From Leucobacter chromiisoli (GTDB lineage Bacteria > Actinomycetota > Actinomycetes > Actinomycetales > Microbacteriaceae): 64,000 nt of DNA. Positions 44,131 through 60,142 of the stretch are shown here, one piece after another. The notes below the pieces were generated by a model. The model searched no databases, had not been told where the DNA came from, and saw only the letters and a program-made list of their open reading frames with translations. Positions within the stretch are counted from its first letter, which is position 1. The number at the start of each line of letters is the position of its first letter. The stretch covers positions 124,001-188,000 of the forward strand of contig NZ_JAEHOH010000010.1 in assembly GCF_016522505.1 (NCBI RefSeq). Reading direction: 5' to 3'. A program made the translations under genes and the position numbers.

Positions 44131-44559
44131 TCAACTCCGAAGTCGTTCGATGATGCGGAGCGTGCGTTGTTCCGGATCGAGCTCGATCAGGTCGCCCGTC
44201 CGCACCGTCTCGAGCAGCTCGACATCGAAGCCCGCGGCGATGGGGATGCCCGCGGTCACTGCGCCCTGGACCATGACGGGATTGGTGTCGCCCAGGATCA
44301 GGCCGGCGAAGCCGATTCCTCGCTTCGCCATGGCCATGAGCGCCCACCCGCCCGCGACGCCGCCCTGCACGCCCGGCGCGATGAACAAGCGATCGGTGAT
44401 GGAGGAGCCCCGCAGCGGATGATCGATGCGGCTGACGACGCCGTTCACCCGGTCGAGGTCGTAGCGGGCGCTGAACGGAACCGTGCTGACGAGGGCGCGG
44501 GCCCGCACGGTGGGACCGATCGCGCGAGCGAGGGAGAACCGGGTTGCAGTGGATTCCAT
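44131..44559 (-). CDS. aconitase X small subunit (swivel domain, DUF126)
   Basis: A 142-aa beta-barrel swivel-domain protein: VVSRIDHPLRGSSITDRLFIAPGVQGGVAGGWALMAM and LILGDTNPVMVQGAVTAGIPI match DUF126. With the large subunit it forms a two-chain aconitase-X hydro-lyase; known members dehydrate cis-3-hydroxyproline or mevalonate 5-phosphate. The usual Arg-Gly-Ser active-site turn is replaced by Gln65-Gly66-Gly67, and the preceding aromatic-Gly-Gly segment is missing, so it belongs to a divergent branch. It begins 3 bp after the large-subunit stop codon. Confidence 0.87.
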   Translation of the reverse strand: MESTATRFSLARAIGPTVRARALVSTVPFSARYDLDRVNGVVSRIDHPLRGSSITDRLFIAPGVQGGVAGGWALMAMAKRGIGFAGLILGDTNPVMVQGAVTAGIPIAAGFDVELLETVRTGDLIELDPEQRTLRIIERLRS

Positions 44560-44562
44560 TTC

Positions 44563-45786
44563 TCAGATCTCCTCGGTCGAGATGACGATGCAGTCCTCGG
44601 TCGTGCGGATCGAGGGTTGGTAGCCGTGGGCGCGGACGATGTTCGCCAGCTTCGCGGAGTTCGTGGTGAGCGTCGACCAGCCGAACTCCTCGCGCTGACT
44701 GGCGGGATCCATGAGATACCAGCAGGTGTCGTGGATGATCTTCACCCCCGCTGCGCGGAGCCGCTCGGCGTATCCGAGCCGCTCCGCCTCCTCTCCGACC
44801 ATCCGGTTCGTCGTCAGGATCATCGTCGTGCCGTCTGCGACCCGGCGTCCGAGCATCAGCTGATCGATGCGGGCCACCTCGAACAGCGATAGCTGCGGCG
44901 CGGTGAAGACCGTGACGCTGGGGGCCTCGCCCGCACCGGGCTCGAGGAAGGCGTCGAGCTCGGCCGCGGAGAGGGACGAAGCGGCCAGAAGTGGATTGCC
45001 ACGGGTCGCCTCCTCGAGCGTCGGCGCCTCCGGCGTCACGCCGACCACGTGGAACATCGCCATCGAGCCGTAGCTCGCGATGGCGGCGGCGAGATGCTTG
45101 AGGTCGTCGGTGTCGGGAGCGCTGCCGGCGGGCACCCGGATGGCGGCCACGTTGTCGTAGCCGCGGTACCGCTGGCCGACGAGAGCCCCCACGGCCCCCC
45201 AGTGCGCGGGATCGGTGAGCTCGGCGTCGACCTCGACCAGGTAGCGCGCGGCCCGGTTCTCGTCGAGGTGGAAGCCGTAGGCCGGCGTGCGGCCGGTGAT
45301 CCCTGCGAGGAGGGAGGCGCTGCCGGCCTCGTAGTTGGTGCGGGCGCCGAGCACCGCGTTCGCATAGGCGACGGTGCCCGTGTCGCCCCAGGCGACGTGC
45401 TCGCCTCGCTGGGGCTGGTAGACGGTCTGGTAGCCGATGCAGGTGTTGACCGCCATCGCCCCGAGAGAGGCGAGGAGCTTGCGCACGAGCAGCTCCTCCT
45501 CTGCGAGGTGGGTGGACTGCGCGAGCTCGTCCATCGACTCGAGGTCGACGCAGATGGCGTTGCGGGTGGTCGGGATGCGGCACCGCCCCCGCCCCTCGAC
45601 GAGTTCCTCGAGGTACTCCCTCCCCGCTGTTCCGAAGACCTCCGGGTCCCCCGTGAAGTGGGCGTTGGATATCTCCACGAAGCCCCGTGCGCCGAAGAAC
45701 TCCCCGACGAGCATCTGCTCGCGAAGCGCCGCCGCGACTGCACCGCCGGAGTCGAGCATGTGCTGCTCTTCAGGTGTGAGGATCAT
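44563..45786 (-). CDS. aconitase X catalytic (large) subunit, DUF521
   Basis: A 407-aa protein with the aconitase-X layout: MILTPEEQHMLDSGG at the start, AVNTCIGYQ (Cys116), HDTCWYL (Cys355), TTNSAKLANIVRAHG and TTEDCI (Cys399). The three cysteines are placed as expected for iron-sulfur cluster ligands. It should dehydrate a hydroxy acid, producing an enoic acid, enamine or keto tautomer. ATG at 45786 has AAAGGAG 7 nt upstream. It is divergent from the ABC/carboxylase operon, suggesting co-regulation and a shared pathway. Substrate unknown. Confidence 0.9.
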   Translation of the reverse strand: MILTPEEQHMLDSGGAVAAALREQMLVGEFFGARGFVEISNAHFTGDPEVFGTAGREYLEELVEGRGRCRIPTTRNAICVDLESMDELAQSTHLAEEELLVRKLLASLGAMAVNTCIGYQTVYQPQRGEHVAWGDTGTVAYANAVLGARTNYEAGSASLLAGITGRTPAYGFHLDENRAARYLVEVDAELTDPAHWGAVGALVGQRYRGYDNVAAIRVPAGSAPDTDDLKHLAAAIASYGSMAMFHVVGVTPEAPTLEEATRGNPLLAASSLSAAELDAFLEPGAGEAPSVTVFTAPQLSLFEVARIDQLMLGRRVADGTTMILTTNRMVGEEAERLGYAERLRAAGVKIIHDTCWYLMDPASQREEFGWSTLTTNSAKLANIVRAHGYQPSIRTTEDCIVISTEEI

Positions 45787-46022
45787 GGGTGATCTCCTTT
45801 GGAGACGATTAGATACGTTACATATAGACTTATAGCTGAGATCGGAAAGCACGGCAAGTGGATGTTCTGCTCTATAACGCCCGGATCATGCTGAACTGTA
45901 AGAAAAAAAGGATTGTGGATTCCGATGCTCTCCGCTAATCTCGTCCAAGAGATGTTGAATAACGTTTGTCATTGAACACAGGAACTAGTCGGATTCGACT
46001 CGCTACATTCAAAGGAGAAGCG
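45787..46022. promoter_or_regulatory. AT-rich divergent control region between aconitase X and the ABC/carboxylase operon
   Basis: 236 bp, markedly AT-richer than both flanks, with an A-run at 45901-45909. ATCTC-N6-GAGAT (45938-45953) is an inverted repeat of operator size. A strong leftward promoter is visible (separate entry); the rightward one could not be fixed. AAAGGAG at 46011-46017 is the ribosome site of the ATPase gene. Confidence 0.6.
45829..45857 (-). promoter_or_regulatory. promoter of the aconitase X genes
   Basis: Read on the minus strand: TTGCCG (45857-45852), a 17-nt spacer and TATAAG (45834-45829). This is a near-consensus vegetative promoter; the start codon is 42 nt beyond the -10. 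Confidence 0.65.
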
Positions 46023-46835
46023 ATGCGAGACAGCGCGGTGCAGGTGCCGAAGATCGAGTTCATCGGTGTCGAGAGGGTCTTCGACCCGCCGACGAAGTCC
46101 GCATCGACGGTGACCGCTGTCTCGGGCCTCGACCTCGCGGTCGGGAAGTCCGAGATCGTCTCGATCGTCGGCCCGACGGGATGTGGCAAGTCGACTGCGA
46201 TGAACCTCGTCGCCGGTTTCGACGAGCACACCGACGGCCGGCTGCTGCTCGGCGGGCAGACCATCCACGGTCCCGGTCCCGACCGCTCGGTCGTGTTCCA
46301 GCACGCGGCCCTCTTCCCCTGGATGAACGTGCTCGAGAACGTCGTGTTCGGGGTCAAGACTCGCGGCATGCCGAAGGACGATTACCTCGAGAAGGCGGCG
46401 ACCCTGCTGAAGGCGGTCGGCCTGACCGGCTTCGAGAAGCACTACCCCTACCAGCTCTCGGGCGGCATGCAGCAGCGCGTGCAGATCGCGCGCGCCCTCA
46501 TCTCGAGCCCAGAGGTGCTCCTCATGGACGAGCCCTTCGGCGCGCTCGACTACCAGACGCGCATCCTCATGCAGCACCTGCTGCTCGAGCTCTGGGAGGA
46601 GTTCGAGCCCACGATCCTGTTCATCACGCACGACATCGGCGAGGCGATCTACATCTCCGACCGGGTTATCGTGATGACCGCCCGCCCGGGCCGCGTCAAG
46701 CTCGACGTGACCGTGAGCGAGCCCAAGCCCCGATCACTCGACTTCCTCACCTCGTCCACGTTCACCGAACTCGAGCACCAGATCCTTGAGTCGGTCCAGG
46801 AAGAGATCACCGCCGCGCGCGCAGCCGCGGCCTAG
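46023..46835 (+). CDS. NitT/TauT-type ABC transporter ATP-binding protein
   Basis: A 270-aa ATPase: Walker [25 protein letters not shown], signature LSGGMQQR, Walker [14 protein letters not shown]-loop ITHDIGEA. This is the SsuB/TauB/NrtD pattern of importers for small anions and heterocycles. ATG at 46023 is set by AAAGGAG 6 nt upstream. First gene of a 13-kb operon running to 59033. It pairs with the permease at 49128 and the receptor lipoproteins at 46869, 47968 and probably 57948. Confidence 0.93.
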
Positions 46836-46868
46836 TAATGCACACAGTGAAAGCAAGGAGAAGCGTTC

Positions 46869-47933
46869 ATGTCGAAGAAGACACGGATCATCGGTGCACT
46901 CGCCGCAGTCGGTCTCGCCTTGGGCGTGAGCGCATGCAGCGGGGGCGCCTCCGCCGGGGGCGATTCGGGCGGCAGCGGCTCGACGGACGCCCCGATCAAG
47001 TTCGAGTGGGGCATGGCGACCGGGTCGTATCTGGCCACGTACATCGCGCTCGACAAGGGCTACTTCGCCGACGAGGGCCTCGACCCCAACATCCAGGTGT
47101 TCCAGTCGGGCGCCCCGATGCTCGCCGCCTTCGAGAGCGACAGTCTCGACGTGGGCACCGTCGGCCTCGCCACCGTCTTCGCGCTCGGCAAGGACATCGA
47201 CATCCGGTACTTCGGCCTCGAGGGCGACGCCTCCGCGGCCTCCGGTCTCGTCGCGCGCGAGGGCAGCTCGATCCAGAGCCTCGAAGATCTCGCGAACGGC
47301 AGCCCCGTCGGCGTGCCGACCGGTACCTGCGCGATGGTCTCGGCGTATTACGCCGCAGAATCGATCGGAGCGGAGTTCAACGATATGAACGTGGTCGACG
47401 TCGTGCCGAACCTCTACGCCAACTCCTTCGAGAGCAACTCGATCGAAGCCGGCTTCTCATGGTCGCCGTTCATCGTCGATCTCGAGGACGCGGGCAGCGA
47501 GATCATCGGCTGGGACGCCGAGTGGGTCCCCGGAGGTGGCAGCTGCCCCGAGACTCAGTTCGGGCGGGGCGATTTCCTCGACGAGCACCCGGAGGTGCCG
47601 GAGAAGATGCTGCGGGCGCTCGATCGCGCCTGGGCCGACATCCGAGCAGACCGGAGCATCGCCGTCGATGCGCTCGTGGAGCGCCTGAGCGTCTCCCGGG
47701 AGACCGCGGTCGACGTCGTGGACCGCTACGTCGATGCGCAGCCCGAGCTCGCCGACCTGCTCGACCCTTCCAACCGCTTCGCCTTCGTCGGCGACGAGGG
47801 TCTGGTGGCCCAGCTGGAGGTCGCGTCCGACGCCTTTGCGGCTCTTGACGTGATCGAGGCCCCGATTCCCCTCGAACGGCTCCAGTCCGCCGTCGACTCG
47901 AGCGCGATCGAAGCGGTGGTCAACGGCGAGTAA
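46869..47933 (+). CDS. ABC substrate-binding lipoprotein 1 (NMT1/SsuA-like)
   Basis: A 354-aa receptor with a signal peptide and lipobox VSAC (Cys23), a Gly/Ser linker and a type II binding fold (FEWGMATGSYLATYIALDKGYFADEGLDPNIQVFQSGAP; LDVGTVGLATVFALG; GFSWSPFIVDL). A conserved Cys in SCPETQFGR recurs in its paralogue. It should capture the substrate outside the cell for the NitT/TauT-type importer. AAGGAG lies 9 nt upstream. It is followed after 34 nt by a close paralogue, a tandem duplication. Confidence 0.92.
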   Translation: MSKKTRIIGALAAVGLALGVSACSGGASAGGDSGGSGSTDAPIKFEWGMATGSYLATYIALDKGYFADEGLDPNIQVFQSGAPMLAAFESDSLDVGTVGLATVFALGKDIDIRYFGLEGDASAASGLVAREGSSIQSLEDLANGSPVGVPTGTCAMVSAYYAAESIGAEFNDMNVVDVVPNLYANSFESNSIEAGFSWSPFIVDLEDAGSEIIGWDAEWVPGGGSCPETQFGRGDFLDEHPEVPEKMLRALDRAWADIRADRSIAVDALVERLSVSRETAVDVVDRYVDAQPELADLLDPSNRFAFVGDEGLVAQLEVASDAFAALDVIEAPIPLERLQSAVDSSAIEAVVNGE

Positions 47934-47967
47934 CCCGGTCCCAGCAAGACGATAGTGAAGGAGAATG

Positions 47968-49050
47968 ATGTTCACATCGAAAGCCGTGCGCGTGATCGGT
48001 GCCGTCGCCATCGCCGGGCTCACCCTCAGCGGGATCAGCGCCTGCTCCTCCGGCGGCACCGGTGCCGAGAGCGGATCCGACGGCGAAGGATCGGGTGCGG
48101 AGACCCCGATCGAGTTCGAGTGGGGCGTGCCGACCTCGGCCTACGTCGCCCTGTACGTGGCGGAGGACCAGGGGTACTTCGAAGACGAGGGCCTGGCTCC
48201 GAACTTCCAGACCTTCCAATCGGGCGCCCCACTCCTCGCAGGCCTGCAGAGCGACAGCCTCGACATCGCGACGAGCGGCCTGGCCTCGGTGTTCGCACTG
48301 GGGCAGGGCATCGACATCCGGATCTTCGGCTTCGAGGGGGGCACGGACATCACGGAGGGGCTCGTCGCCCGCGCGGGCGGGTCGATCCAGTCGATCGATG
48401 ACCTGGCGAACGGCGCGCCGGTGGGTGTCGCTACCGGGACCTGCGCGCAGATATCTGCTCTGTTCGCGGCGAAGAAGGCCGGCCTCGAGTATTCCGACAT
48501 CAATGTGGTCGACCTCGCGCCGAACCTGTTCGCCAACTCGTTCGAGAGCGGGTCGGTCGATGCGGGCTTCTCGTGGTCGCCGTACATCCTCGACCTGCAG
48601 CGCGACAGCGGCGCGACGATCATCGGGTGGGACACGGACTGGGTGCCCGGCGGCGCGAGCTGCCCGCAGACCCACTACGGCCGCAGCGAGTTCCTCGACG
48701 AGCACCCGGATGCGGCGGTGAAGATCGTGCGCGCTCTTGAGCGGGCCTGGGCTGATCTTCGCGAGGATCCCCAGATCGGCGTCACCGCGCTGCTCGACCG
48801 TATGGGTGGCTCGGAGGAGACCGCCCTCGAGGTCGTCGAGCGCACGATCGAATCGCAGCCCACGCTCGAGGATCTCGCCACCGCGGGCAGTGCGCACAGC
48901 TTCGTCGGAACGGAGGGGATCGTCCGCCAATTCGACCAGGCGGCGGACGCCTTCGTAGACCTCGGCGTGATCGCGGAGCCGCTCTCAGCGGAGACCCTCA
49001 AGAACGCCGTCGACCCGACTGCTCTCGAAGCGGTCTTCGCGGGCGAATAG
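47968..49050 (+). CDS. ABC substrate-binding lipoprotein 2 (paralogue of 1)
   Basis: A 360-aa lipoprotein with lipobox ISAC. It is collinear with the preceding receptor and shares its blocks: FEWGVPTSAYVALYVAEDQGYFEDEGL, TFQSGAPLLAG, SDSLDIATSGLASVFALG, DAGFSWSPYILDL and SCPQTHYGR. The second of two adjacent ATGs is chosen, since AAGGAG is only one base from the first. Differences at the binding-cleft positions may broaden ligand range. 77 nt separate it from the permease gene. Confidence 0.92.
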   Translation: MFTSKAVRVIGAVAIAGLTLSGISACSSGGTGAESGSDGEGSGAETPIEFEWGVPTSAYVALYVAEDQGYFEDEGLAPNFQTFQSGAPLLAGLQSDSLDIATSGLASVFALGQGIDIRIFGFEGGTDITEGLVARAGGSIQSIDDLANGAPVGVATGTCAQISALFAAKKAGLEYSDINVVDLAPNLFANSFESGSVDAGFSWSPYILDLQRDSGATIIGWDTDWVPGGASCPQTHYGRSEFLDEHPDAAVKIVRALERAWADLREDPQIGVTALLDRMGGSEETALEVVERTIESQPTLEDLATAGSAHSFVGTEGIVRQFDQAADAFVDLGVIAEPLSAETLKNAVDPTALEAVFAGE

Positions 49051-49127
49051 ACAGCACTGAGATCAGCCGGCGGCGGGCACCGCAGACCCGCCCATCGTCG
49101 CCGGCAATCGAACGGAGAAGACGAACC

Positions 49128-49958
49128 ATGGCAATAACAGCCCCCATCCGCACCCGCCCCAGGGCGTCGTCGGGCGGACAGAAGAAGCGCAGATCGAGGC
49201 GCCTGCTCCCGATCTCGATCGGCACCATCGTGGTGATCCTGGTGGTCTGGTTCGCAGTGACCAATACCGGGTTGGTCGGGCCGAAGTACCTGCCGAAGCC
49301 GCAGGAGCTCGTCGCGCAGTTCGGCGTGCTGCTCTCAGACGGCTACCAGGGCAAGTCGCTCTGGGAGCACATCGGCGCGAGTCTCGGCCGCACGCTCTCG
49401 GGCTTCGTCATCGGCTCGTTCATCGGGATCATCGTCGGCCTGGCCGCCGGCTCCAGCGCGGTGGTCTCGGCGGCCATCTCGCCGATCATGGCGTTCCTCC
49501 GGCCGATCCCTCCCATCGCCTTCATCCCGATGGTCGTGCTCTACTTCGGCCTGGGCGAGACGGGCAAGGTCGTGCTCATCGCGCTCACCTCGTTCAACTA
49601 CGCGGTGGTCAACGCCCAGGCCGGCGCTGCGGGGGTACCGGTCGCCTATCGCCGTGCCGCCGCTACCCTCGGCATCCCGAAGCGGGTCGAGTTCTTCAGG
49701 GTGATCCTGCCGGCGGCCCTGCCGAACATCTTCGCCGGCCTGAAGGTCGCCCTCGCGCTCTCGTGGGCGGTCGTGGTGGCCGCCGAGCTCGTGGGTGCGC
49801 AGGTCGGTCTCGGCTACATGATCAACCAGGCGGCGCTGCTCTTCCAGATCCCGATCGTCTTCATCGGCATCATCCTCATCGGTGTCATCGGGCTCGGGCT
49901 GAACCTGTTGATCAACTTCATCGAGAGCCGGCTCATCCACTGGCGGGGGCGCGGCTGA
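49128..49958 (+). CDS. NitT/TauT-type ABC transporter permease
   Basis: A 276-aa inner membrane protein of the SsuC/TauC class with about six spans. The cytoplasmic EAA-like loop is AYRRAAATLGIPKRVEFFRVILPAALPNIFAGLKVALALSW. ISPIMAFLRPIPPIAFIPMVVLYFGLGETGK is the other family block. The basic N-terminus (about 30 residues) is cytoplasmic. It overlaps the DUF35 gene by one base (TGATG), coupling transport to metabolism. Confidence 0.93.
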   Translation: MAITAPIRTRPRASSGGQKKRRSRRLLPISIGTIVVILVVWFAVTNTGLVGPKYLPKPQELVAQFGVLLSDGYQGKSLWEHIGASLGRTLSGFVIGSFIGIIVGLAAGSSAVVSAAISPIMAFLRPIPPIAFIPMVVLYFGLGETGKVVLIALTSFNYAVVNAQAGAAGVPVAYRRAAATLGIPKRVEFFRVILPAALPNIFAGLKVALALSWAVVVAAELVGAQVGLGYMINQAALLFQIPIVFIGIILIGVIGLGLNLLINFIESRLIHWRGRG

Positions 49959-50341
49959 TGCACAACGTCACCCAGCAGGTGCGCGAGTACTTCGCCCTCA
50001 TCTCCGACGGCACCCCATCGGTGCCGCGGTGCGAGGAGTGCGGCGTGCGCTTCCTGCCGCCGCGGGCCCTCTGCCCGGCCTGCGGGGCCGAACGGCTCGG
50101 CTGGCACGACGCGACGGGAGCGACCGGCACGATCTACAGTCTCACCCGCATGCCGAACGGCAGGACGGTGGCCCTCGCCGAGCTCGAGTGCGTCGACGGG
50201 GGCGGCCGGCTCTTCGCGGAGGTGGTCGGGTCCGACGCCGCGGAGGCGCGGATCGGCGACGCCGTGGTGCTCGACGTCGCCGAGGCGGAGACCGAGTTGG
50301 GAAGCCGCGTGCCGGTGCTGCGAAGAGGAGGATCGCGATGA
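49958..50341 (+). CDS. DUF35 zinc-ribbon/OB-fold protein
   Basis: A 127-aa protein. Residues 24-42 form a rubredoxin-like zinc ribbon (CEEC at 25-28, CPAC at 39-42), and the rest is a short OB fold (GTIYSLTRMPNGRTVALAELE; RIGDAVVLDVAEAE). DUF35 proteins partner with thiolase-like proteins, either as acyl-CoA channelling subunits of acetoacetyl-CoA thiolase/HMG-CoA synthase in archaea or as obligate subunits of steroid side-chain aldolases. Its ATGA overlap with the thiolase-like gene shows the same pairing here. Confidence 0.92.
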   Translation: MHNVTQQVREYFALISDGTPSVPRCEECGVRFLPPRALCPACGAERLGWHDATGATGTIYSLTRMPNGRTVALAELECVDGGGRLFAEVVGSDAAEARIGDAVVLDVAEAETELGSRVPVLRRGGSR

Positions 50342-51477
50342 CCGATATCGTGCTCGCGGGGTACGGCCTGGCCGAGACCCGGGCGCCCCATCACCGCGAC
50401 CCCCTCGACATCATGGCGGAGGCTGCGATCCTCGCGATGCGCGACGCGGGAGTCGCCGCCCGAGAGGTCGACGGAGTGTTCACCGCGACGGCTCAGGCCT
50501 CGCTGCCGTCGCTCGCGCTCGCCGAGCACCTGGGCATCACGCCCCGGTATCTCGACTCGACGGCGCACGGCGGATCCTCCAACCTCTCGCACATCGCCCA
50601 CGCGGCGGCGGCGATCCGGTCCGGGGCCATCGACGTCGCGCTGGTCGTCTACGGGAGCACCCAGCGGACCGCGCTCAAGGACACGGGCACGCGGCCCGCG
50701 GTCGCGCACGTGCCGCCCTTCGAGGCCGGCGCCGGCGCCCTGTTCCCGATCGCCTCGTACGCGCTCATGGCGGCGCGGCACATGCACGAGTACGGCACCA
50801 CGCGGGAGCAGCTCAGCTCGGTCGCGGTGGCCGCGCGCGAGTGGGCCGCGCTCAACCCGGCCGCCCAGCTGCGCGACCGCATCACCGTGGACGACGTGGT
50901 CGCCTCGGCGCTCATCTCGACGCCCTTCCACAAGCTGGACTGCTGCCTGATCACCGACGGCGGCGGCGCGATCGTCGTGATGTCGGCTGAGCGCGCGGCC
51001 GCCCGCGGCCTGCGAGGGGTGAGGGTCCGAGGTCTCGCCGAAGCCTCGGAGCACCTGACCGTCAGCGCGATGCCCGACCTCGTCAGCTGCGGCGCGGTGC
51101 TCTCCGGTCGCGCGGCGTTCGAGCAGGCGGGCATCGGGCCCGAAGACATCGACGTCGTCCAGATCTACGACGCGTTCAGCATCAACCCCCTCATGATCCT
51201 CGAGGATCTCGGCTTCTGCGCCAAGGGCGAGGGCGGCCCGTTCATCGAGGCGGGTCACACGCGACCCGGAGGCAAGCTGCCCCTGAACACCTCCGGCGGC
51301 GGACTCGCCTTCACCCATCCCGGCATGTTCGGCATCTACACCGTCATCGAGGCCATGACGCAACTGCGCGGCGAGGCGGGCGACCGGCAGGTCTCGGCCC
51401 GGACCGCAGTCGCGCACGGCATCGGCGGAACGATGTCCACGCACGCCACCCTCGTGCTCGAAGCCCCCGCGGGCTAG
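50338..51477 (+). CDS. thiolase-like protein (SCP-x/Ltp2 type), probable aldolase subunit
   Basis: A 379-aa thiolase-fold protein. The C-terminal GGxxAxxHPG motif is present (SGGGLAFTHPGMFG), as is AHGIGGTMSTHATLVL. The nucleophilic Cys of true thiolases is absent: the segment reads STAHGGSS (about 74-81), and the second Cys position is also not Cys. Together with the fused-neighbour DUF35 protein this resembles Ltp2-type retro-aldolases, which release an aldehyde or ketone from a 3-hydroxyacyl-CoA. GAGGAGG precedes the ATG. The carboligase/lyase role is inference. Confidence 0.85.
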   Translation: MTDIVLAGYGLAETRAPHHRDPLDIMAEAAILAMRDAGVAAREVDGVFTATAQASLPSLALAEHLGITPRYLDSTAHGGSSNLSHIAHAAAAIRSGAIDVALVVYGSTQRTALKDTGTRPAVAHVPPFEAGAGALFPIASYALMAARHMHEYGTTREQLSSVAVAAREWAALNPAAQLRDRITVDDVVASALISTPFHKLDCCLITDGGGAIVVMSAERAAARGLRGVRVRGLAEASEHLTVSAMPDLVSCGAVLSGRAAFEQAGIGPEDIDVVQIYDAFSINPLMILEDLGFCAKGEGGPFIEAGHTRPGGKLPLNTSGGGLAFTHPGMFGIYTVIEAMTQLRGEAGDRQVSARTAVAHGIGGTMSTHATLVLEAPAG

Positions 51478-51510
51478 AGCGTTCACCAGACACAAGGAGT
51501 CACCAGACAG

Positions 51511-53571
51511 ATGGAACAGCTCTTCAACCCCCGGAGCATCGCGGTCGTCGGCGCCTCGGCGAATCCGGCCGCCATCGGCGGGAAACCCATCTCGCAGCTC
51601 GTGAGCCACGGCTACGCCGGCGATATCTACCCCGTGAACCCCAACCGCGACGAGGTGCAGGGGCTGCGGTGCTATCCGTCAATCGATGAGGCGCCGGACG
51701 GCATCGACCTCGCGATCATCGCGGTGCCCGCCGCGGTCGTGCCCGGGGTGGTCGAGGCCTGCGGCCGCAGGGGGATCCCCTACGCGCTCGTGCTGAGCTC
51801 GGGCTTCGCCGACGCGGGCGGCGACGGAGTGCGGTTCCAGGAAGAACTGCGGCAGACCGCGGTCGCCTCGGGGGTGCGCGTGGTCGGCCCCAACTGCGTG
51901 GGCTTCATCAGCGCGGCCAACCGGGTGTACGCCGGCTTCGGGGCCTTCTTCGACTACGACTTCCAACCCGGCCCCGTCGGGTTCGTCACGCAGTCCGGCG
52001 GCGTGGGGGGATCCCTGCTCACCGTCGCCGATGAACAGGGCGTGCAGTTCGCCCACTTCGTGCACACCGGCAACGCCATGGACGTCGACATCGAGACCGT
52101 GCTCGACGCCTGGGTCGACGACCCAGCGGTGCGGGTGCTGGTGACCTACATCGAGGGCCTCGGGGACTCGGGCGAGTTCCCCCGCGTCGCGGGCCGCGCG
52201 CTCGAGGCGGGCAAGCCCCTCGTCGTGTGGAAGGCCGGCCAGTCGAGCGCGAGCGCCAGCGCGGTCGTCTCGCACACCGGGCGCATGGCGGGCGACATGG
52301 AGCGCTACCGCGCCGTGTTCGAGCGCTACGGGATCATCGAGGTCGACGACTCGGCCGACATGATCGACGTGCTCAAGATGGCGCAGAGCTCGCGGCGCCC
52401 GGCCGGTGGCCGCGTCGGTGTCATCTCGGTCTCGGGCGGCGCGGGCGTGGTCGCGGCCGACACCCTCGAGCGCATGGAGACGCTCGAGCTCGCCGAGTTC
52501 CCGGCAGCCGCGGTCGAACGGATCGCGGCCGAGCTGCCCGGCTTCGCGACCTCGGTCAATCCGGTCGACGTCACGGCGCAGATCTTCAACGACCCCGAGC
52601 TCTTCGAACGGGTCGTGGGCGTGCTCGCCGAGCACGAGGCGGTCGATCAGATTCTCGCCTGCGTCGCGTCGGTGCACAGCGCGGTCGGAGAGCGGGTGGC
52701 CCGGGCCATCGTCGACGCCGCCACCAGGCTCTCGGTGCCCATCGTCGTCTCCTGGTCGGCGCGCGACGAGCTCAACGGCGCGGCCTTCGAGCTGCTCGCC
52801 GAGGCCGGCATCCCCGTGTTCAAGAGCCCCGAGCGCGCGCTGAAGGCGATGGATCGCTACACCCGCTTCGCCGGCGCGGCGGTTGCCGGGGCCGCCGCGC
52901 CGCAGCCCGCGGCCGAGCGGGGCCGCGACTGGGCGCGCACGGTCGAGTTCGACGTGCTCGAGGAGCTGCGCTCGCGCGGCGTGGCCGTGCCCGAGCAGCG
53001 CCTCGTGCAGAACGCCGACGAGGCCGCCCGGGCGGCCGAGGAGATCGGGTTCCCCGTGGTGGTGAAGCTGCAGTCGCCCGACGTGCCGCACAAGGCGGCG
53101 GTCGACGCCATCCGACTCGGCGTGCAGAGCACTCGTGCGGTGCGCGAGGCGGCCGATCACCTGGCGGCGCTCGCGACCGGGAGGCCCGAGGACGAGATGC
53201 GCGGCATGCTCGTGCAGGGCATGGCCGAGCGGGGCACCGAGCTCATCATCGGTTACCTGAGGGATCGCTCGCTCGGCGGCTTCCTGCTGCTCGGCCGCGG
53301 CGGCTCCGGCGTCGAGGAGATGGGCGACCGGGTGCTCGTGCCCACCCCGATCTCGAAAGAGGAGGTGCTCGAGGCGCTCGGCAGGCTCGCCGTGGTGAGC
53401 GAGGCTCGGCTCGGCGAGACCGCTCTCGGCGCCGTGGCCGACATCGCCGGGGTGCTGCAGAGCATCGCCGCGGAGGCGAGCGCAGACCTCGAGGAGATCG
53501 AGGTGAACCCGGTCATCGTCAGGGGCGACACGGTCACGGCCGTCGACGCGCTCGCCATTCAGCAGGGCTGA
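51511..53571 (+). CDS. NDP-forming acyl-CoA synthetase, CoA-binding domain first
   Basis: A 686-aa acyl-CoA synthetase. Order: CoA-binding Rossmann domain (residues 1-135; IAVVGASANPAAIGGKP, VVGPNCVGF), ligase-CoA domains with the phosphohistidine His255 in SHTGRMAGD, then C-terminal ATP-grasp (about 470-686; FPVVVKLQSPDVPHKAAVDAI, EIEVNPVIV). It makes a CoA thioester from a free acid. It lies 33 nt after the thiolase-like gene and 52 nt before the biotin carrier gene, so its product is probably a substrate for one of them. The order is opposite to the paralogue at 16064. Confidence 0.92.
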   Translation: MEQLFNPRSIAVVGASANPAAIGGKPISQLVSHGYAGDIYPVNPNRDEVQGLRCYPSIDEAPDGIDLAIIAVPAAVVPGVVEACGRRGIPYALVLSSGFADAGGDGVRFQEELRQTAVASGVRVVGPNCVGFISAANRVYAGFGAFFDYDFQPGPVGFVTQSGGVGGSLLTVADEQGVQFAHFVHTGNAMDVDIETVLDAWVDDPAVRVLVTYIEGLGDSGEFPRVAGRALEAGKPLVVWKAGQSSASASAVVSHTGRMAGDMERYRAVFERYGIIEVDDSADMIDVLKMAQSSRRPAGGRVGVISVSGGAGVVAADTLERMETLELAEFPAAAVERIAAELPGFATSVNPVDVTAQIFNDPELFERVVGVLAEHEAVDQILACVASVHSAVGERVARAIVDAATRLSVPIVVSWSARDELNGAAFELLAEAGIPVFKSPERALKAMDRYTRFAGAAVAGAAAPQPAAERGRDWARTVEFDVLEELRSRGVAVPEQRLVQNADEAARAAEEIGFPVVVKLQSPDVPHKAAVDAIRLGVQSTRAVREAADHLAALATGRPEDEMRGMLVQGMAERGTELIIGYLRDRSLGGFLLLGRGGSGVEEMGDRVLVPTPISKEEVLEALGRLAVVSEARLGETALGAVADIAGVLQSIAAEASADLEEIEVNPVIVRGDTVTAVDALAIQQG

Positions 53572-53623
53572 TCGCCGCATCCGGCATCACGCAACGGGAA
53601 CAACAGAGAAGGTAAGGAACATC

Positions 53624-54178
53624 ATGGAGAAGCAGGTGCTGTCTTTCCAGGAGCTGGATAACATCCTGAGGCTGCTCGACGCCTCGCCGCGCTCGGGGAC
53701 CTTCGAGATACGGGTGGGAGATCTCAAGCTCAAGGTCGCCAAGGGCGACGAGAATGCGGCGGCCGCGGTCCCAGCTCCCGCCGCTGCCGCCCCGGCGGCC
53801 CCGGTCGCGGCGCCGGCGCCGGCGACCGATCCTGCTCCCACCGCCGCGCCTGCCGCCCGGGAGCCCGAGCCCGCCCCTGAGCCCGCTGCCGCGCCGGCTG
53901 CTGCGGCGCCCGCCATCGAGAGCGGCCACACCGTCCGCTCGCCCATGACGGGCGTGTTCTACCGGCAGCCCTCGCCCGACGCCCCGCCCTTCGCCGCCGA
54001 GGGGCAGCGGGTGGAGGCGGGCGATGACCTCGCCATCATCGAGGTGATGAAGCTGATGAACCGCCTCTCGTCGCCCGTCAGCGGCACGGTCAGGCAGGTG
54101 TGCGCCGAGAACGAGCAGCTGGTCGAGAACGGCGCGCCGCTGTTCGTCATCGAGCCCGACGAAGCGGGTGACCAGTGA
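53624..54178 (+). CDS. biotin carboxyl carrier protein (AccB-like)
   Basis: A 184-aa biotin carrier. An N-terminal AccB-like helical motif (LSFQELDNILRLLDASPRSGTFEIR) is followed by an about 55-residue Ala/Pro-rich flexible linker, then a biotinyl domain (SPMTGVFYRQPSPDAPPF; IIEVMKLMN with biotinylated Lys143). It shuttles carboxybiotin between the carboxylase and the carboxyltransferase encoded next. GTGA overlap with the biotin carboxylase gene. EVMKLMN, like acetyl-CoA carboxylase carriers, replaces the AMKM of pyruvate carboxylase. Confidence 0.94.
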   Translation: MEKQVLSFQELDNILRLLDASPRSGTFEIRVGDLKLKVAKGDENAAAAVPAPAAAAPAAPVAAPAPATDPAPTAAPAAREPEPAPEPAAAPAAAAPAIESGHTVRSPMTGVFYRQPSPDAPPFAAEGQRVEAGDDLAIIEVMKLMNRLSSPVSGTVRQVCAENEQLVENGAPLFVIEPDEAGDQ

Positions 54179-55578: not shown

Positions 55579-57050
55579 TGTCGCGCAAGATCAAGCTCGA
55601 AGACATCTCCATCCGCGACGGGGCGCAGTGCCTCTGGGCGACCCGGCTCGCCACTGATGAGATCGTCCCGATCGCCGAGACCATGGGCCGCGCGGGCTTC
55701 GACATCATCGACGTCACCGGGGGCGCCGCGATCGATACGAGCATCATCTACCTGAGGGAGAACCCGTTCGACCGCATCCGGATCCTGCGCGAGCTGATGC
55801 CGGACTCGCGGCTGAACTTCAACACCCGGGGTCAGAGCGTCTTCCGGTGGACGCAGTACCCCGACGACGTCGCAGAGCTCGCCTTGCGGGTGTTCGGCAA
55901 GGCGGGCATCGATTCGGTGATGCTCTTCGACCCGCTCAACGACATGCGCAACCTCGAGTTCTCCTGCCGAGCGGCGAAGAACCTGGGCATGTACACGATC
56001 GGCTCGGTCACCTACACGATCAGCCCGTACCACACCGACGAGCACTTCGTGGAGAAGGCGAAGGAGCTCGTTGCGATGGGCGTCGACGCGGTCTCGCTGA
56101 AGGACCCCTCCGGGCTGCTCGTGCCCGAGCGCGCGCAGTCGCTCATCAGGAAGTTCCGCGAGGTGCTGAACGGGCAGGCGCTGCAGCTGCACTGTCACAC
56201 CTCGACCGGCACCGGGCCCGATGTGCACCGTGCCGCGATGGATCTCGGTGATCTGACCCCGGATGTCTTCCACGGGGCTGTGCCGCCGTTCGCCTGGGGC
56301 ACCTCCCACCCCTCCCACGAGTTCCTCATCGACAACCTCGAGGAGCGGGGCTTCACCGTCGACATCGATCGCGAGGCGGTGCGGGAGATGGAGGCCTACT
56401 TCACCGGCCTCGCCCGTCGCCGCGGAATGCCGACGAGCCACGAGGTGCCCGACGACCCGGCGATGCTGGTGCACCAGGTGCCCGGCGGGATGCTCGCCAA
56501 CCTGCAGCGGCAGCTGACCGAGCAGGGGATGGCGGATCGGCTCCCCGAGGTGCTCGACGAGGTGAGCCGCGTCCGCCTCGACCTCGGCTACCCGCTGCTC
56601 GTCAGCCCGATGGCGCAGTACGTCGGCATCCAGGCCGTGCTCAACGTGGTGACCGGCGACCGCTATGCGATGGTGCCCGACGAGGTGCGCAGCTACCTGC
56701 TCGGCTACTACGGCGCGACGCCCGGGCCGGTCGATCCCGACGTGCTCGACCGGGTCATCGGCGATGCCGAGCCCATCACCCGGCGACCGGGCGAGGTGCT
56801 CGAGCCGATGGTCGAGCGCTTCGCGGCCGAGAACGGGCCGTTCGAGAGTGACGAGGCGCTCGCGCTCGCCATCTTCTATTCGAAGACCGACCTCGAGAAG
56901 TGGAACTGCAAGGACTGGGACGGGTACCGCGCGACGCCCAGGAACGCGCTCGGCGTGCTGCTCGACACGGTCGCCCGCGATCCGCGCATCCGATCCTTCC
57001 GCTTCGAGCGGCCCGGCGCGCGCACGGTCGTCAGCTTCAACGAGAACTAA
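55578..57050 (+). CDS. carboxyltransferase subunit of pyruvate/oxaloacetate (transcarboxylase 5S) type
   Basis: A 490-aa TIM-barrel carboxyltransferase. Metal and active-site residues are present: Asp14 and Gln17 in RDGAQ (family RDGHQ/RDAHQ), Arg84 in NTRGQS, FDPLNDMRNL, Lys175 in SLKDPSG, His205/His207 in LHCHTSTG and Thr242 in GTSHP. The segment before the Thr (GAVPPFAWGT) differs from the SSMS seen in oxaloacetate decarboxylase and pyruvate carboxylase, implying another substrate. No OadB-type membrane subunit is nearby, so a sodium pump is unlikely. It probably carboxylates, or transfers carboxyl to, a 2-oxo acid-like molecule. Confidence 0.9.
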   Translation: MSRKIKLEDISIRDGAQCLWATRLATDEIVPIAETMGRAGFDIIDVTGGAAIDTSIIYLRENPFDRIRILRELMPDSRLNFNTRGQSVFRWTQYPDDVAELALRVFGKAGIDSVMLFDPLNDMRNLEFSCRAAKNLGMYTIGSVTYTISPYHTDEHFVEKAKELVAMGVDAVSLKDPSGLLVPERAQSLIRKFREVLNGQALQLHCHTSTGTGPDVHRAAMDLGDLTPDVFHGAVPPFAWGTSHPSHEFLIDNLEERGFTVDIDREAVREMEAYFTGLARRRGMPTSHEVPDDPAMLVHQVPGGMLANLQRQLTEQGMADRLPEVLDEVSRVRLDLGYPLLVSPMAQYVGIQAVLNVVTGDRYAMVPDEVRSYLLGYYGATPGPVDPDVLDRVIGDAEPITRRPGEVLEPMVERFAAENGPFESDEALALAIFYSKTDLEKWNCKDWDGYRATPRNALGVLLDTVARDPRIRSFRFERPGARTVVSFNEN

Positions 57051-57060
57051 GGAGAGACAG

Positions 57061-57888
57061 ATGAACAGCAGCAGCACCCCGAGGATGCCGGTCGATTACG
57101 AGGCGGCCGGCGCGCTCGCCGGGCTCTTCCGCCTCGACGGCCGCAAGGTCGTGGTGCTCGGCGCCGCCGGCGGCATCGGGCAGACCGTCGCCGTGGGCCT
57201 CGCCGCCTTCGGCGCGCACATCGTCGCCGTCGACCGCTCGGACGAGCTCGCGGAGTCGGCCGCCGAAGCGATCGGCGCCGCCGGCGGCAGCGTCGAGGCG
57301 CAGGCGTGCGACATGATGGACTCGTCGTCGATCGCGGCGCTCGTCGAGGCGCACTCCGACGCCGAGTCGGTCGTCATCATGCCCGCCGCGCTTGTGCGCA
57401 AGCGGCTCATCGACCAGACCGAGGAGGAGATCGACTTCCAGCTCGCCCTCAACATCAAGTACACCCTGCTGATCGCCCGGGGCTTCGCCGCGAAGATGGC
57501 GGAGCGCGGTCACGGCAGCATCGTCGCCATGTCGTCGGTGCGCGCGCAGGTGGTCGAGACGCACTCGGGCATGTACTCCGCCTCGAAGGCCGCGCTGATC
57601 CTCATGATGAAGTCGCTCGCGCTCGAGTTCGGCGCCGAGGGCGTGCGCTTCAACACCATCGCCCCGTCTCCCGTCGCGACGCCGCTCACGGCCGACGTCC
57701 GCGCGAAGCAGGAGTGGGTCGACCAGGTCTCCGAGCGCTCGCTGCTGAAGCGCTGGGCTCAGCCGGCCGATTTCGTCGGCCCGGTGGTGTTCCTGGTGTC
57801 GGACGCCTCGGCGTTCATCACCGGCGCGGACATCGTCGTCGACGGGGGATGGACCTCGACGGACGGGATGGCCCGGGCCGAATCGTAG
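57061..57888 (+). CDS. SDR family oxidoreductase
   Basis: A 275-aa classical SDR: cofactor loop GAAGGIG (residues 34-40), Ser158/159, Tyr172 and Lys176 in YSASK, and a C-terminal DIVVDGGWTSTDG. The usual NNAG is replaced by MPAA (107-110), a divergence seen in some members. An Asp at the end of the second strand (AVDRS) suggests NAD preference. GGAGAG lies just before the ATG. Ten nt after the carboxyltransferase gene, it likely oxidises or reduces a keto/hydroxy intermediate of this pathway. Confidence 0.9.
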   Translation: MNSSSTPRMPVDYEAAGALAGLFRLDGRKVVVLGAAGGIGQTVAVGLAAFGAHIVAVDRSDELAESAAEAIGAAGGSVEAQACDMMDSSSIAALVEAHSDAESVVIMPAALVRKRLIDQTEEEIDFQLALNIKYTLLIARGFAAKMAERGHGSIVAMSSVRAQVVETHSGMYSASKAALILMMKSLALEFGAEGVRFNTIAPSPVATPLTADVRAKQEWVDQVSERSLLKRWAQPADFVGPVVFLVSDASAFITGADIVVDGGWTSTDGMARAES

Positions 57889-57947
57889 GAAGGCCCCGAT
57901 CCCGGGGTGACAGGCACATCGATCACCATCAACGAGGAGGCATGCAC

Positions 57948-59033
57948 ATGCATGGATCGAGAAGAGCAAGGATCGCCGCGGGCCTGGGCGCCGTCGTCCT
58001 GGGCGCCGCCGGGCTGATGGCCTGCTCGTCGTCCCCGGACACCGCGGACGGCGGTGGCGCCGACGGCGCCGAGGAGCTGATCACGATTCGGATCGGGCTC
58101 CCGGTCTCGAACTACTGGCCCGGCTACCTGGCGCGCGACGAGGGACTGTTCGAGGCGGCGGGCCTGAAAGCCGAGTACATCAGCTTCACGAGCGGAGCGC
58201 CGCTGATCGCGGCGCTCGACAGCGGCAGCATCGATGCCGTGTACACCGGCCTCGCGACGCTCTTCGCGGTGAACCAGGGCGTCGAGCTCGAGTACGTGCT
58301 GACGCCCCTGGACTCCTCGAGCCAGGAGGGGCTCGTGGTGCCGGAGGGCAGCCCGATCACCTCCTACGAGGATCTGCGGCCGGGCATGGTGGTCGGCGCG
58401 CCGACCGCCACCTGCGGCCACATCTCGGCTGTGAGCGCCATCGACGCCGCCGGCCTCACCACCGATGAGGTCGTGATCTCGAACCTCGATCCGACCGTCA
58501 TGAGCGGAGCGCTGACGAACAACGAGGTCGACGGGGTCTTCATCTGGGGGCCCTGGAACCTCGCGCTCGAGACCGAGGGCAACAAGATCGTGAACTTCGA
58601 CCCCGACTACCAGGAGGGGGTCGGGCTCTGCCCGACGAACATCGCGATCCGCCCGGCCTTCGAGAAGGAGCACCCCGGCGCGGCCTGCCGCATGATCGAC
58701 GGCCACGCCCGGGCGATCGAGATGGGTCTCACCGACCGAGAGGCCGCGGCGCGCACATTGGAGACCGAATTGGGTATCTCGCCCGAGGTCGCTCTCAAGA
58801 CGGTGGACACGCTGCGCATCCCGAGCATCGAGGAGCAGGCTGAGGAGGATTCGCCGTTCTCCATCGTGGACCCGGACGGCGGGCTCGCGGCGCAGCTCTC
58901 CGATGCGAGCGAGGTCCTCGAGACCACGGGCGTGTTCGAGCAGTCGCTCTCGAACAGCGACGTGTTCTCGATGATCAACTCCGCGCCTCTGCACGACTAC
59001 CTCGACGACGGCACCTGCAACCTGTCGAGCTGA
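57948..59033 (+). CDS. ABC substrate-binding lipoprotein 3 (NMT1/SsuA-like)
   Basis: A 361-aa receptor with a signal peptide and lipobox LMAC. The fold is that of receptors 1 and 2 but more distant: LPVSNYWPGYLARDEGLFEAAGL, FTSGAPLIAALDSGSIDAVYTGLATLFAVN, GVFIWGPWNLAL, and GLCPTNIA carrying the same conserved Cys. The second ATG (57948) is chosen, 7 nt after GAGGAGG. Last gene of the operon, 59 nt after the SDR gene and 4 nt before a long hairpin. A third receptor for one permease/ATPase pair is unusual. Confidence 0.9.
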   Translation: MHGSRRARIAAGLGAVVLGAAGLMACSSSPDTADGGGADGAEELITIRIGLPVSNYWPGYLARDEGLFEAAGLKAEYISFTSGAPLIAALDSGSIDAVYTGLATLFAVNQGVELEYVLTPLDSSSQEGLVVPEGSPITSYEDLRPGMVVGAPTATCGHISAVSAIDAAGLTTDEVVISNLDPTVMSGALTNNEVDGVFIWGPWNLALETEGNKIVNFDPDYQEGVGLCPTNIAIRPAFEKEHPGAACRMIDGHARAIEMGLTDREAAARTLETELGISPEVALKTVDTLRIPSIEEQAEEDSPFSIVDPDGGLAAQLSDASEVLETTGVFEQSLSNSDVFSMINSAPLHDYLDDGTCNLSS

Positions 59034-60044: not shown

Positions 60045-60142
60045 ATATGAATGTTAGGTACGATTCAGATACATTCAGGAGTGCCCGGATGCGAAGCGGT
60101 CGAAGCGCTCGGCGCCGGGCGCATGAGCACTAGGAGTCGACG

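What the first reader, a model, noticed from the sequence alone, without database searches (positions are those of the whole stretch)
44131..59033. Candidate undescribed organic-acid pathway: aconitase X, DUF35/thiolase-like pair, acyl-CoA synthetase and biotin carboxylase with a dedicated importer
Twelve genes, two leftward and ten rightward from one AT-rich divergent region, combine an aconitase-X hydro-lyase, a NitT/TauT-type importer with three receptors, a CoA ligase, a three-gene biotin-dependent carboxylase, a thiolase-fold lyase pair and an SDR. Each family is known, but I know of no pathway using this set. A logical reading is import, dehydration, CoA activation, carboxylation, retro-aldol cleavage and reduction; order and substrate are inferred.
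Basis: partly seen in the sequence, partly recalled or inferred. Interest (0 to 1): 0.85.

Follow-up and report, generated by a model that had tools for sequence, protein, structure and literature searches.

The report
Unassigned conserved organic-acid breakdown operon
A block of about sixteen neighbouring genes, found together in an unnamed bacterium, in Arthrobacter and in an unrelated proteobacterium, looks like a complete but undescribed pathway that imports a small organic acid, adds CO2 to an intermediate, and then splits it into usable pieces; what the acid is remains unknown.

Summary
The gene set is real and is one conserved unit. The stretch holds 14 genes (2 leftward, 12 rightward), not 12. 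Two further members lie just outside it: a GntR/UTRA regulator (59169-59963) and an EthD-family protein (60143-60469). Thirteen gene families plus at least one receptor lie together in 5 of 5 genomes examined: the window's, three Arthrobacter and the gammaproteobacterium Aquisalimonas lutea. The motif AGATACRTT occurs twice in 64 kb, at the divergent promoter and before ethD (0.02 expected; pattern chosen after looking). The "thiolase" lacks the nucleophilic Cys and keeps the retro-aldolase Tyr (YDAF). The aconitase X has neither characterised active site; its general-base Ser is Gly. Preferred model: a functional analogue of the two-step reductive-TCA arc (carboxylate, reduce, aconitase-type step, ADP-forming CoA activation, retro-aldol). 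Order and substrate are inferred. A paper search for the combination listed two papers, neither holding the words aconitase X. Another pyruvate-carboxylase-type protein lies elsewhere in the genome, so this one is probably not the housekeeping enzyme.

The parts
44131..44559 (-). acnX small (swivel) subunit, DUF126
   Evidence: PF01989 64 bits; general-base Ser replaced by Gly, motif PGVQGGVA in 5 of 5 loci
44563..45786 (-). acnX large (catalytic) subunit, DUF521
   Evidence: PF04412 347 bits; two of three Fe-S Cys kept, Asp-Thr-Gly in place of Glu-Ser-Ser
45787..46022 (.). divergent promoter region with AGATACGTT at 45811-45819
   Evidence: same motif in the divergent promoters of three Arthrobacter loci
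46023..46835 (+). ABC importer ATPase, NitT/TauT type
   Evidence: PF00005; best NCBIfam matches SaoA, taurine, nitrate, all below cut-off
46869..47933 (+). receptor SBP1 (NMT1)
   Evidence: PF09084; nearest solved relatives TauA and SsuA, weak
47965..49050 (+). receptor SBP2 (NMT1)
   Evidence: PF09084
49128..49958 (+). ABC importer permease
   Evidence: PF00528
49958..50341 (+). DUF35 / OB-fold zinc-ribbon partner
   Evidence: On the longer ORF: PF12172 27.5 bits (cut-off 23.2), PF01796 21.0 (below its 27.1); start
50338..51477 (+). thiolase-fold retro-aldolase-like protein (PRK06158 family), YDAF motif, no nucleophilic Cys
   Evidence: PF22691; NF004811 467 bits against cut-off 421; 4u4e, 6ok1 Ltp2; alignments
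51511..53571 (+). ADP-forming acyl-CoA synthetase (single chain)
   Evidence: PF13607, PF13549, PF13380; nearest solved 3-hydroxypropionate- and 4-hydroxybutyrate-CoA ligases
53624..54178 (+). biotin carboxyl carrier protein
   Evidence: PF00364
54175..55578 (+). biotin carboxylase
   Evidence: PF02786, PF00289, PF02785
55575..57050 (+). carboxyltransferase, PycB/OadA type
   Evidence: PF02436, PF00682; 5ks8 PycB; pocket motif NFN[ST]RGQS
57061..57888 (+). short-chain dehydrogenase/reductase
   Evidence: PF13561
57942..59033 (+). receptor SBP3 (NMT1), diverged paralogue; present in 3 of 5 loci
   Evidence: PF09084
59169..59963 (+). GntR/UTRA regulator, conserved partner
   Evidence: PF07702, PF00392; in 5 of 5 loci
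60067..60075 (+). second AGATACRTT site, upstream of ethD
60143..60469 (+).
   Evidence: PF07110 30.6 bits against 22; 70-77% identity in the other four loci; fold nearest EthD 2ftr and 4-methylmuconolactone methylisomerase
60487..61818 (+). chromate-family (CHR) transporter, 17 nt after ethD; accessory, no match in the stretches of the other four loci; start codon not determined
   Evidence: PF02417

Best explanation
One catabolic module, probably GntR/UTRA-controlled, for a small anionic organic acid taken up by an ABC importer of the NitT/TauT type. Most likely order, inferred. (1) A free 2-oxo acid, either the imported acid or formed from it, is carboxylated at C3 by BC/BCCP/CT. (2) The SDR reduces the resulting oxaloacetate-like acid to a malate- or isocitrate-like hydroxy acid. 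(3) AcnX moves the hydroxyl as aconitase does, or dehydrates/hydrates it, on the free acid. (4) The ADP-forming synthetase makes the CoA thioester. (5) The DUF35/thiolase-fold aldolase cleaves the beta-hydroxyacyl-CoA to an acyl-CoA (acetyl-CoA if step 3 isomerises) plus a shorter 2-oxo acid. This works like the two-step reductive-TCA arc, built from an SDR, AcnX and DUF35/aldolase in place of the canonical enzymes. The EthD protein may isomerise a lactone or enol intermediate. Shown: gene content, co-conservation, a shared motif, active-site residues, a second PYC_OADA protein elsewhere in the genome. Inferred: reaction order, substrate, cluster type in AcnX, the regulator's site, the role of EthD.
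For: Thirteen families plus at least one receptor co-located in 5 of 5 genomes, with pairwise identities co-varying with CT (r 0.78-0.97 for the 12 families compared). AGATACRTT twice in 64 kb, both in the module's promoters, 0.02 expected (post hoc). CT of PYC_OADA type; the metal and 2-oxo-acid residues Asp, Gln, Arg, Lys and second His are in 120 of 120 listed sequences (the window's own among them), the first His in 119. A separate PYC_OADA protein, in a 1150-aa open frame as a full-length pyruvate carboxylase would be, lies elsewhere in the genome, so the operon CT is probably dedicated. The aldolase lacks the Cys and keeps the Tyr of the Ltp2/Sal YDxF motif. Five homologues of 48-53% identity, from 5 of the 20 plasmid rows listed (133 records), also lack the Cys, keep YDAF, and lie beside MaoC or enoyl-CoA hydratase genes; the thiolase of a Hpe-like carboxylase cluster has the Cys and His for the Tyr. 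This operon has no such hydratase, so AcnX, or CT plus SDR, must supply the beta-hydroxyl. A citryl-CoA lyase gene sits near a related CT (38%) in Sulfitobacter dubius. The rTCA arc uses the same enzyme logic.
Against: No substrate or activity is known. The AcnX lacks the general-base Ser and has Asp for the catalytic Glu, so an aconitase-like or dehydratase step is not assured. AcnX sits behind its own promoter. A 49% AcnX in another actinomycete has no carboxylase beside it. Related CTs act on aryl ketones. No result fixes the direction of the SDR or of the aldolase.
Confidence: 0.38

Rival explanations
1. AcnX acts first. The imported acid is a 2,3-dihydroxy or 2-amino-3-hydroxy acid; AcnX dehydrates it to a 2-oxo acid (as cis-3-hydroxyproline goes to pyrroline-2-carboxylate). 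That is carboxylated, reduced, CoA-activated and cleaved to an acyl-CoA plus glyoxylate.
For: Characterised AcnX enzymes dehydrate beta-hydroxy acids. acnX is divergent from the rest. A relative of 38% identity stands near glycolate oxidase and malate synthase G genes (glyoxylate users) in Pseudorhizobium NT-26. No leftover enzymes.
Against: Those glyoxylate genes were not seen in this module. The base Ser is absent.
Confidence: 0.22
2. Ketone route. CoA ligase plus aldolase first split an imported beta-hydroxy acid (hydrated from an enoic acid by AcnX) into acetyl-CoA and a ketone; the carboxylase then carboxylates the ketone to a beta-keto acid, which the SDR reduces.
For: HpeCBA, a three-subunit carboxylase, carboxylates phosphorylated aryl methyl ketones, and its homologue XccBCA serves in 4-hydroxyacetophenone breakdown. 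A CT-DUF35-thiolase cluster of that kind exists in Rhodococcus pyridinivorans. Aldolase relatives sit with hydratases.
Against: Our CT keeps the pocket Arg (120 of 120 listed); three Acv-type relatives lose it, though the Hpe-like one keeps it. No kinase/phosphatase as in Hpe. After carboxylation the keto acid would need a second CoA activation and a thiolase, which is absent.
Confidence: 0.18
3. One reading: import, AcnX dehydration, CoA activation, carboxylation of the acyl-CoA, retro-aldol, reduction.
For: All enzymes present.
Against: The CT is PYC_OADA/HMGL type, not a Carboxyl_trans acyl-CoA carboxylase. It is like the 5S transcarboxylase subunit too, which works on oxaloacetate/pyruvate (general knowledge).
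Confidence: 0.06
4. Substrate is an organosulfonate, with AcnX or a later step releasing sulfite.
For: Receptors closest to TauA and SsuA among solved structures. TauE/SafE in HY1533, SulP in Aquisalimonas, CHR in the window next to the module.
Against: The three transporters differ, and none turned up among the ORFs scanned beside the MYb229 and 35W modules. Sulfoacetaldehyde acetyltransferase is over the family cut-off in 0 of 5 carrier genomes; other desulfonating enzymes were not searched. NMT1 receptors also bind non-sulfonates (general knowledge).
Confidence: 0.08
5. Two unrelated functions side by side: an anaplerotic pyruvate carboxylase and an acyl-CoA pathway, with AcnX a bystander.
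For: CT still looks able to bind pyruvate.
Against: A separate PYC_OADA protein in a 1150-aa frame exists. Joint conservation across a phylum boundary, 4-nt overlaps and a shared motif.
Confidence: 0.05

Closest known systems
Two-step reductive TCA arc of Aquificaceae (2-oxoglutarate carboxylase, oxalosuccinate reductase, aconitase, citryl-CoA synthetase, citryl-CoA lyase; passages of PMC5441870; aconitase as the linking step is general knowledge)
   Same: One candidate enzyme for each function: PYC-family carboxylase, reductase, aconitase-superfamily protein, SCS-family CoA synthetase, CoA-ester C-C lyase
   Different: Reductase is an SDR, aconitase is AcnX, lyase is DUF35/thiolase-fold; has a dedicated importer, regulator and EthD; occurs in bacteria that can be expected to have an oxidative TCA cycle (not checked here)
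Hpe / Xcc aryl-ketone carboxylation pathways (passages of PMC9618137)
   Same: Three-gene BCCP/BC/CT carboxylase with a CoA synthetase; a Hpe-like cluster adds DUF35/thiolase
   Different: No kinase or phosphatase here; that cluster's thiolase keeps Cys, ours does not; AcnX, SDR and NMT1 importer only here; three Acv-type CTs lose the pocket Arg
Ltp2/Sal steroid side-chain aldolases with DUF35 partner (passages of PMC12329534)
   Same: DUF35 plus thiolase fold, no nucleophilic Cys, catalytic Tyr of YDxF
   Different: Third residue is Ala (YDAF), not His or Cys; small-acid context; no MaoC hydratase
[quoted passage not shown]
   Same: AcnX fold family, split subunits, two Cys and the active-site Lys
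   Different: Base Ser is Gly, Glu-Ser-Ser is Asp-Thr-Gly, third Fe-S Cys absent; pathway context unlike both

Membership tests
AcnX (aconitase X) | PF04412 large subunit and PF01989 swivel subunit over curated cut-offs | tested here: met
   346.8 against 31.5 and 64.1 against 27 bits
[quoted passage not shown] base Ser; Glu and Ser landmarks | tested here: not met
   210.6 and 24.7 bits for the two subunits (the model is for the fused form, so split subunits could fall short for that reason too); Ser to Gly; Asp-Thr-Gly
Mevalonate-5-phosphate dehydratase (AcnX type IIb) | Three Cys ligands Cys110, Cys283, Cys342 and base Ser62 of the small subunit | tested here: not met
   Cys283 position is Ala or Gly in 120 of 120 listed homologues; Ser to Gly
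Pyruvate carboxylase / OadA carboxyltransferase superfamily | PYC_OADA and HMGL domains with metal Asp, Lys, His, His and substrate Gln, Arg (roles from general knowledge) | tested here: met
Housekeeping pyruvate carboxylase | Sole PYC of the genome, pyruvate-type pocket | tested here: not met
   A second PYC_OADA protein in a 1150-aa frame elsewhere; pocket strand NFN[ST]RGQS instead of QMLLRGQN
Acetyl-CoA / propionyl-CoA-type carboxylase | Carboxyl_trans (PF01039) carboxyltransferase | tested here: not met
   CT matches PF02436 and PF00682 only at E <= 0.001
Canonical thiolase | Nucleophilic Cys | tested here: not met
   HGG[AS]SNLSH at that position in 5 of 5; control thiolase of L048 has Cys
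Ltp2/Sal-type aldolase | DUF35 partner, Tyr of YDxF, no nucleophilic Cys | tested here: met
Ltp2/Sal-type aldolase | Second catalytic residue: Tyr344 (Ltp2) or Cys304 in YDCY (Sal) | tested here: not met
   Third motif residue is Ala; the aligned C-terminal stretch reads GGGLAFTHPGM without a clear Tyr match
Ltp2/Sal-type aldolase | Retro-aldol activity on a beta-hydroxyacyl-CoA | not testable with these tools
   needs assay
Hpe/Acv ketone pathway | PEP-synthase-like kinase and phosphatase beside the carboxylase | tested here: not met
   none in the window's module; such genes are annotated in L048 and L053
Two-step rTCA arc | Five functional steps encoded together | tested here: inconclusive
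   all five functions have a candidate; enzyme families differ in three of five; substrates unknown
NitT/TauT importer | ABC ATPase, permease, NMT1/SsuA-type receptors | tested here: met

The most novel reading that the evidence does not exclude
A horizontally spread carboxylative catabolic pathway in heterotrophs: a 2-oxo acid that normal dehydrogenases cannot handle is shortened by adding CO2, reducing, shifting the hydroxyl with a new class of aconitase X (no base Ser, incomplete Fe-S ligands), activating with CoA and splitting with a thiolase-fold aldolase. In effect this is alpha-keto-acid chain elongation, or the rTCA arc, run as a degradation route from one operon. It would give the first function to a group of AcnX with perhaps 2000 predicted members (2268 at E <= 1e-80; residues checked in the best 120).
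Probability: 0.25. Interest if true: 0.8.

Novelty: new variant of a known kind. Interest (0 to 1): 0.56.

Why it matters
It puts an AcnX group without known function (2268 predicted proteins at E <= 1e-80 among the 8000 scored; residues checked in the best 120) into a fixed enzyme context with an importer and a regulator, so its substrate can be sought by receptor binding and by knock-outs in Arthrobacter strains. If the inferred order holds, it is a carboxylation-dependent way of degrading 2-oxo acids, parallel to a carbon-fixation arc but used for catabolism.

Tried and rejected
Sulfonate route: suggested by TauA/SsuA-like receptors and by TauE, SulP and CHR transporters; Xsc is over cut-off in 0 of 5 carrier genomes, the transporters are inconsistent, so kept only as a weak rival. 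Housekeeping pyruvate carboxylase: rejected, a second PYC_OADA protein exists. Neighbourhood of the next CT group (P0025-P0059, 47-56%; Variovorax and Rubrivivax among the names): not reached. 398 Pseudomonadota gave, besides the known Aquisalimonas, nothing above 44%; 40 handles nothing above 40%; 399 genomes of one order nothing above 46% (queried with P0037); at most 3 candidates per genome were scored. The beta-proteobacterial centre for one search was picked with a 23S probe sequence (BET42a) recalled from memory. EthD and CoA-ligase searches of plasmids found nothing. A 49% AcnX in an unnamed actinomycete lies with ABC permeases, aldehyde dehydrogenase and a 3-hydroxyisobutyrate-type dehydrogenase, no carboxylase; it was alone among 22 genomes of its family. 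Flavin 2-hydroxyacid dehydrogenases beside acnX were seen in 2 of 5 loci and not counted as core. Literature: the listings showed no description of this gene set by title or start of abstract; I did not open those papers except PMC8184944 and PMC5441870; most subscription papers are not held. In one search two of ten proteins (DUF35, SDR) were given in a wrong frame, so their empty results mean nothing; Pfam searches used the right frames.

Contig-length matching used rows copied by hand: 68 of 120 listed CT rows, 61 of 91 EthD rows, 49 of 120 listed AcnX rows (the CT and AcnX lists are themselves the best 120 of 351 and of 2268). Equal lengths suggest, but do not prove, the same contig; short lengths could coincide. 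The AcnX list lacks the known Aquisalimonas contig, so absence from it is weak evidence.

Full report
What is there. Between 44131 and 59033 the window holds fourteen genes: two leftward (AcnX small 44131-44559, AcnX large 44563-45786) and twelve rightward (ABC ATPase, SBP1, SBP2, permease, DUF35, thiolase-fold protein, ADP-forming acyl-CoA synthetase, BCCP, BC, CT, SDR, SBP3). Gaps in the rightward run are 10-77 nt, with one 1-nt and three 4-nt overlaps, as in a single transcript. A hairpin without a T run lies after SBP3 (sequence). Two further genes belong: a GntR/UTRA regulator (59169-59963) and a 108-residue EthD-family protein (60143-60469).

Conservation. One scan of genome contigs with the CT found four relatives at 66-73% identity: Arthrobacter sp. 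MYb229, 35W and HY1533 and the gammaproteobacterium Aquisalimonas lutea (the scan uses exact short patterns, so recall is limited). With the window this makes five genomes. In all five, AcnX large and small, ATPase, permease, DUF35, thiolase-fold protein, CoA synthetase, BCCP, BC, CT, SDR, GntR, EthD and at least one receptor lie together. Order varies. In HY1533 the enzyme operon is divergent from acnX and the importer has moved beyond the SDR; in Aquisalimonas two receptors and the SDR stand first. Rearrangement with retention argues for function rather than common descent alone. Pairwise identities of each component track those of CT (r 0.78-0.97 over ten pairs, 12 families compared; the close pair 35W/HY1533 contributes to this). 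The module is rare: the own genome only among 150 genomes of the family at E <= 1e-100, with no match in the two same-genus genomes listed, and the own genome only above 41% identity among 246 of the class. In Aquisalimonas transposase and group II intron genes lie to its right. Horizontal spread is the simplest reading.

A shared site. The divergent promoters share AGATACRTT-like elements. In the window AGATACRTT occurs twice on both strands of 64 kb, at 45811 in the divergent promoter and at 60067 upstream of ethD; 0.02 are expected from shuffles. It is also in the divergent promoters of the three Arthrobacter loci; among the 83 loci then held it also occurs elsewhere in L020, L038 and L050. 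Aquisalimonas lacks it and has AGGTATG repeats instead. The pattern was chosen after seeing these regions, the window's among them, so the expectation is optimistic. A GntR operator is the obvious candidate, untested.

The EthD protein. It is 70-77% identical between the window and the other four loci, about as well conserved as CT. Among hand-copied rows, 17 contig lengths are shared between the CT and EthD hit lists, 7 of them with CTs of 52-56% identity, and 6 between CT and AcnX, all in the closest CT group (68 of 120, 61 of 91 and 49 of 120 listed rows compared). EthD may therefore follow this carboxylase more widely than AcnX does; but the AcnX list lacks even the known Aquisalimonas contig, so this is weak. 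The AlphaFold model (mean pLDDT 85.6, five sequences) matches the EthD structure 2ftr (E 9e-9) and then 4-methylmuconolactone methylisomerase (3hds, E 1e-6); no PDB sequence matched it at E <= 0.01. An isomerase role on a lactone or enol is possible, unproven.

Carboxylase. The CT is PYC_OADA/HMGL type, closest in the PDB to the beta subunit of a two-subunit pyruvate carboxylase (5ks8), then to oxaloacetate decarboxylase alpha and transcarboxylase 5S. In an alignment of the 120 listed sequences, the window's own among them, the RDxxQ Arg, Asp and Gln, the pocket Arg, Lys and second His are 120 of 120 and the first His 119 of 120; their roles are from general knowledge of pyruvate carboxylase. 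The pocket strand reads NFN[ST]RGQS in the 24 closest (one Cys at the [ST] site) and mostly in the next 35 (P0025-P0059), but nearly always has V and M at the F and second N in the 61 more distant ones; the residue aligned with the Thr of GTSHP is mostly Thr, Asn or Ile, then Tyr, Trp or Phe, then Ala. This points to a substrate other than plain pyruvate, and another PYC_OADA protein in a 1150-aa frame exists elsewhere in the genome. A related three-gene carboxylase acts on phosphorylated aryl ketones (PMC9618137, abstract and passages), so a ketone is not excluded; three Acv-type relatives lose the pocket Arg, the Hpe-like one keeps it.

Thiolase-fold protein. It belongs with PRK06158 (467 bits, cut-off 421), nearest PDB 4u4e, then 9myr and Ltp2 6ok1. 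The nucleophilic Cys position is Gly/Ser or Ala in 5 of 5; the motif is YDAF. In TcLtp2 and CtSal the Tyr of YDHF/YDCY is the catalytic base, and CtSal, with Gly at the Cys position, cannot thiolyse (PMC12329534, passages). Their second catalytic residue (Tyr344 or Cys304) is not matched here, so the proton donor is open. I viewed five plasmid loci out of 20 rows listed (133 records) with homologues of 48-53% identity: all five lack the Cys, keep YDAF and have a MaoC or enoyl-CoA hydratase gene within about 3 kb, as expected for hydratase-aldolase pairs. The thiolase of a Hpe-like carboxylase cluster (33% identity) has the Cys and HDAF, a useful control. This operon has no such hydratase, so the beta-hydroxyl must come from AcnX or from carboxylase plus SDR.

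AcnX. Both Pfam models are met, but the defining residues of both characterised activities are not. The base Ser (Ser70 in AtAcnX, Ser62 in TkAcnX; PMC8184944) is Gly in a profile alignment to 7cnr_B and 2hi6 and in all seven small subunits aligned. The large subunit has Asp-Thr-Gly for Glu-Ser-Ser, two Cys and the Lys in 120 of 120 listed homologues, and Ala or Gly at the third Cys. Watanabe and colleagues note that type IIa has only two Cys and that subclasses IIc-IIf have no landmark residues and no function; this may be one of the latter, but I could not match the names. More distant plasmid members (38-43% identity, AKGG at the Ser site in the four loci whose small subunits were printed) stand with organic-acid transporters, flavin 2-hydroxyacid oxidoreductases, glycolate oxidase, malate synthase G and aldehyde dehydrogenases in the three annotated loci.

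How it most likely works. Every enzyme has a place if a free 2-oxo acid is carboxylated, reduced by the SDR, shifted by AcnX, activated by the ADP-forming synthetase and cleaved by the aldolase, giving an acyl-CoA and a shorter 2-oxo acid. [quoted passage not shown] A related CT (38%) in Sulfitobacter dubius lies near a gene annotated citryl-CoA lyase, a TRAP importer and a GntR. Gene content, co-conservation and residues are shown; order, direction and substrate are inferred. The main alternatives, AcnX first and ketone carboxylation, remain open.

Verdict. A real, conserved, apparently undescribed catabolic module built from known families; the search aimed at AcnX, carboxylase, thiolase and DUF35 together listed two papers, neither with the words aconitase X (listing only).

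Noticed in passing
window 42166-43908 (-): Quinone-dependent D-lactate dehydrogenase (PRK11183, 783 bits) directly downstream of acnX on the same strand; HY1533 has a GlcD/YdiJ-like 2-hydroxyacid dehydrogenase near the same place; none was seen among the ORFs scanned in the other three.
   Followed up: partly
window 60487-61818 (+), L021:12339-13229, L022:11860-13713: Three different anion transporters attached to the module: CHR in the window, TauE/SafE in HY1533, SulP in Aquisalimonas.
   Followed up: partly
L021:1753-2451 (-): BioY biotin transporter next to acnX in HY1533, fitting a biotin-dependent pathway.
   Followed up: no
L039 (Pseudorhizobium banfieldiae NT26_p1): Two AcnX gene pairs with the same small-subunit accession lie either side of acs, glycolate oxidase genes and malate synthase G on a plasmid typed conjugative: a separate AcnX context worth study.
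   Followed up: no
   Followed up: partly
L048 (Rhodococcus pyridinivorans pA): Hpe-like cluster in which the carboxylase is followed by DUF35 and a true thiolase with Cys; the published Hpe cluster, in the passages read, lists neither.
   Followed up: no
L051 (Sulfitobacter dubius plasmid c): Related CT with BC, two biotin/lipoyl proteins, citryl-CoA lyase, TRAP importer and GntR.
   Followed up: no
L022:15027-20940: IS1595-type transposase, group II intron reverse transcriptase and another transposase-like gene right of the Aquisalimonas module, a hint at mobility.
   Followed up: no
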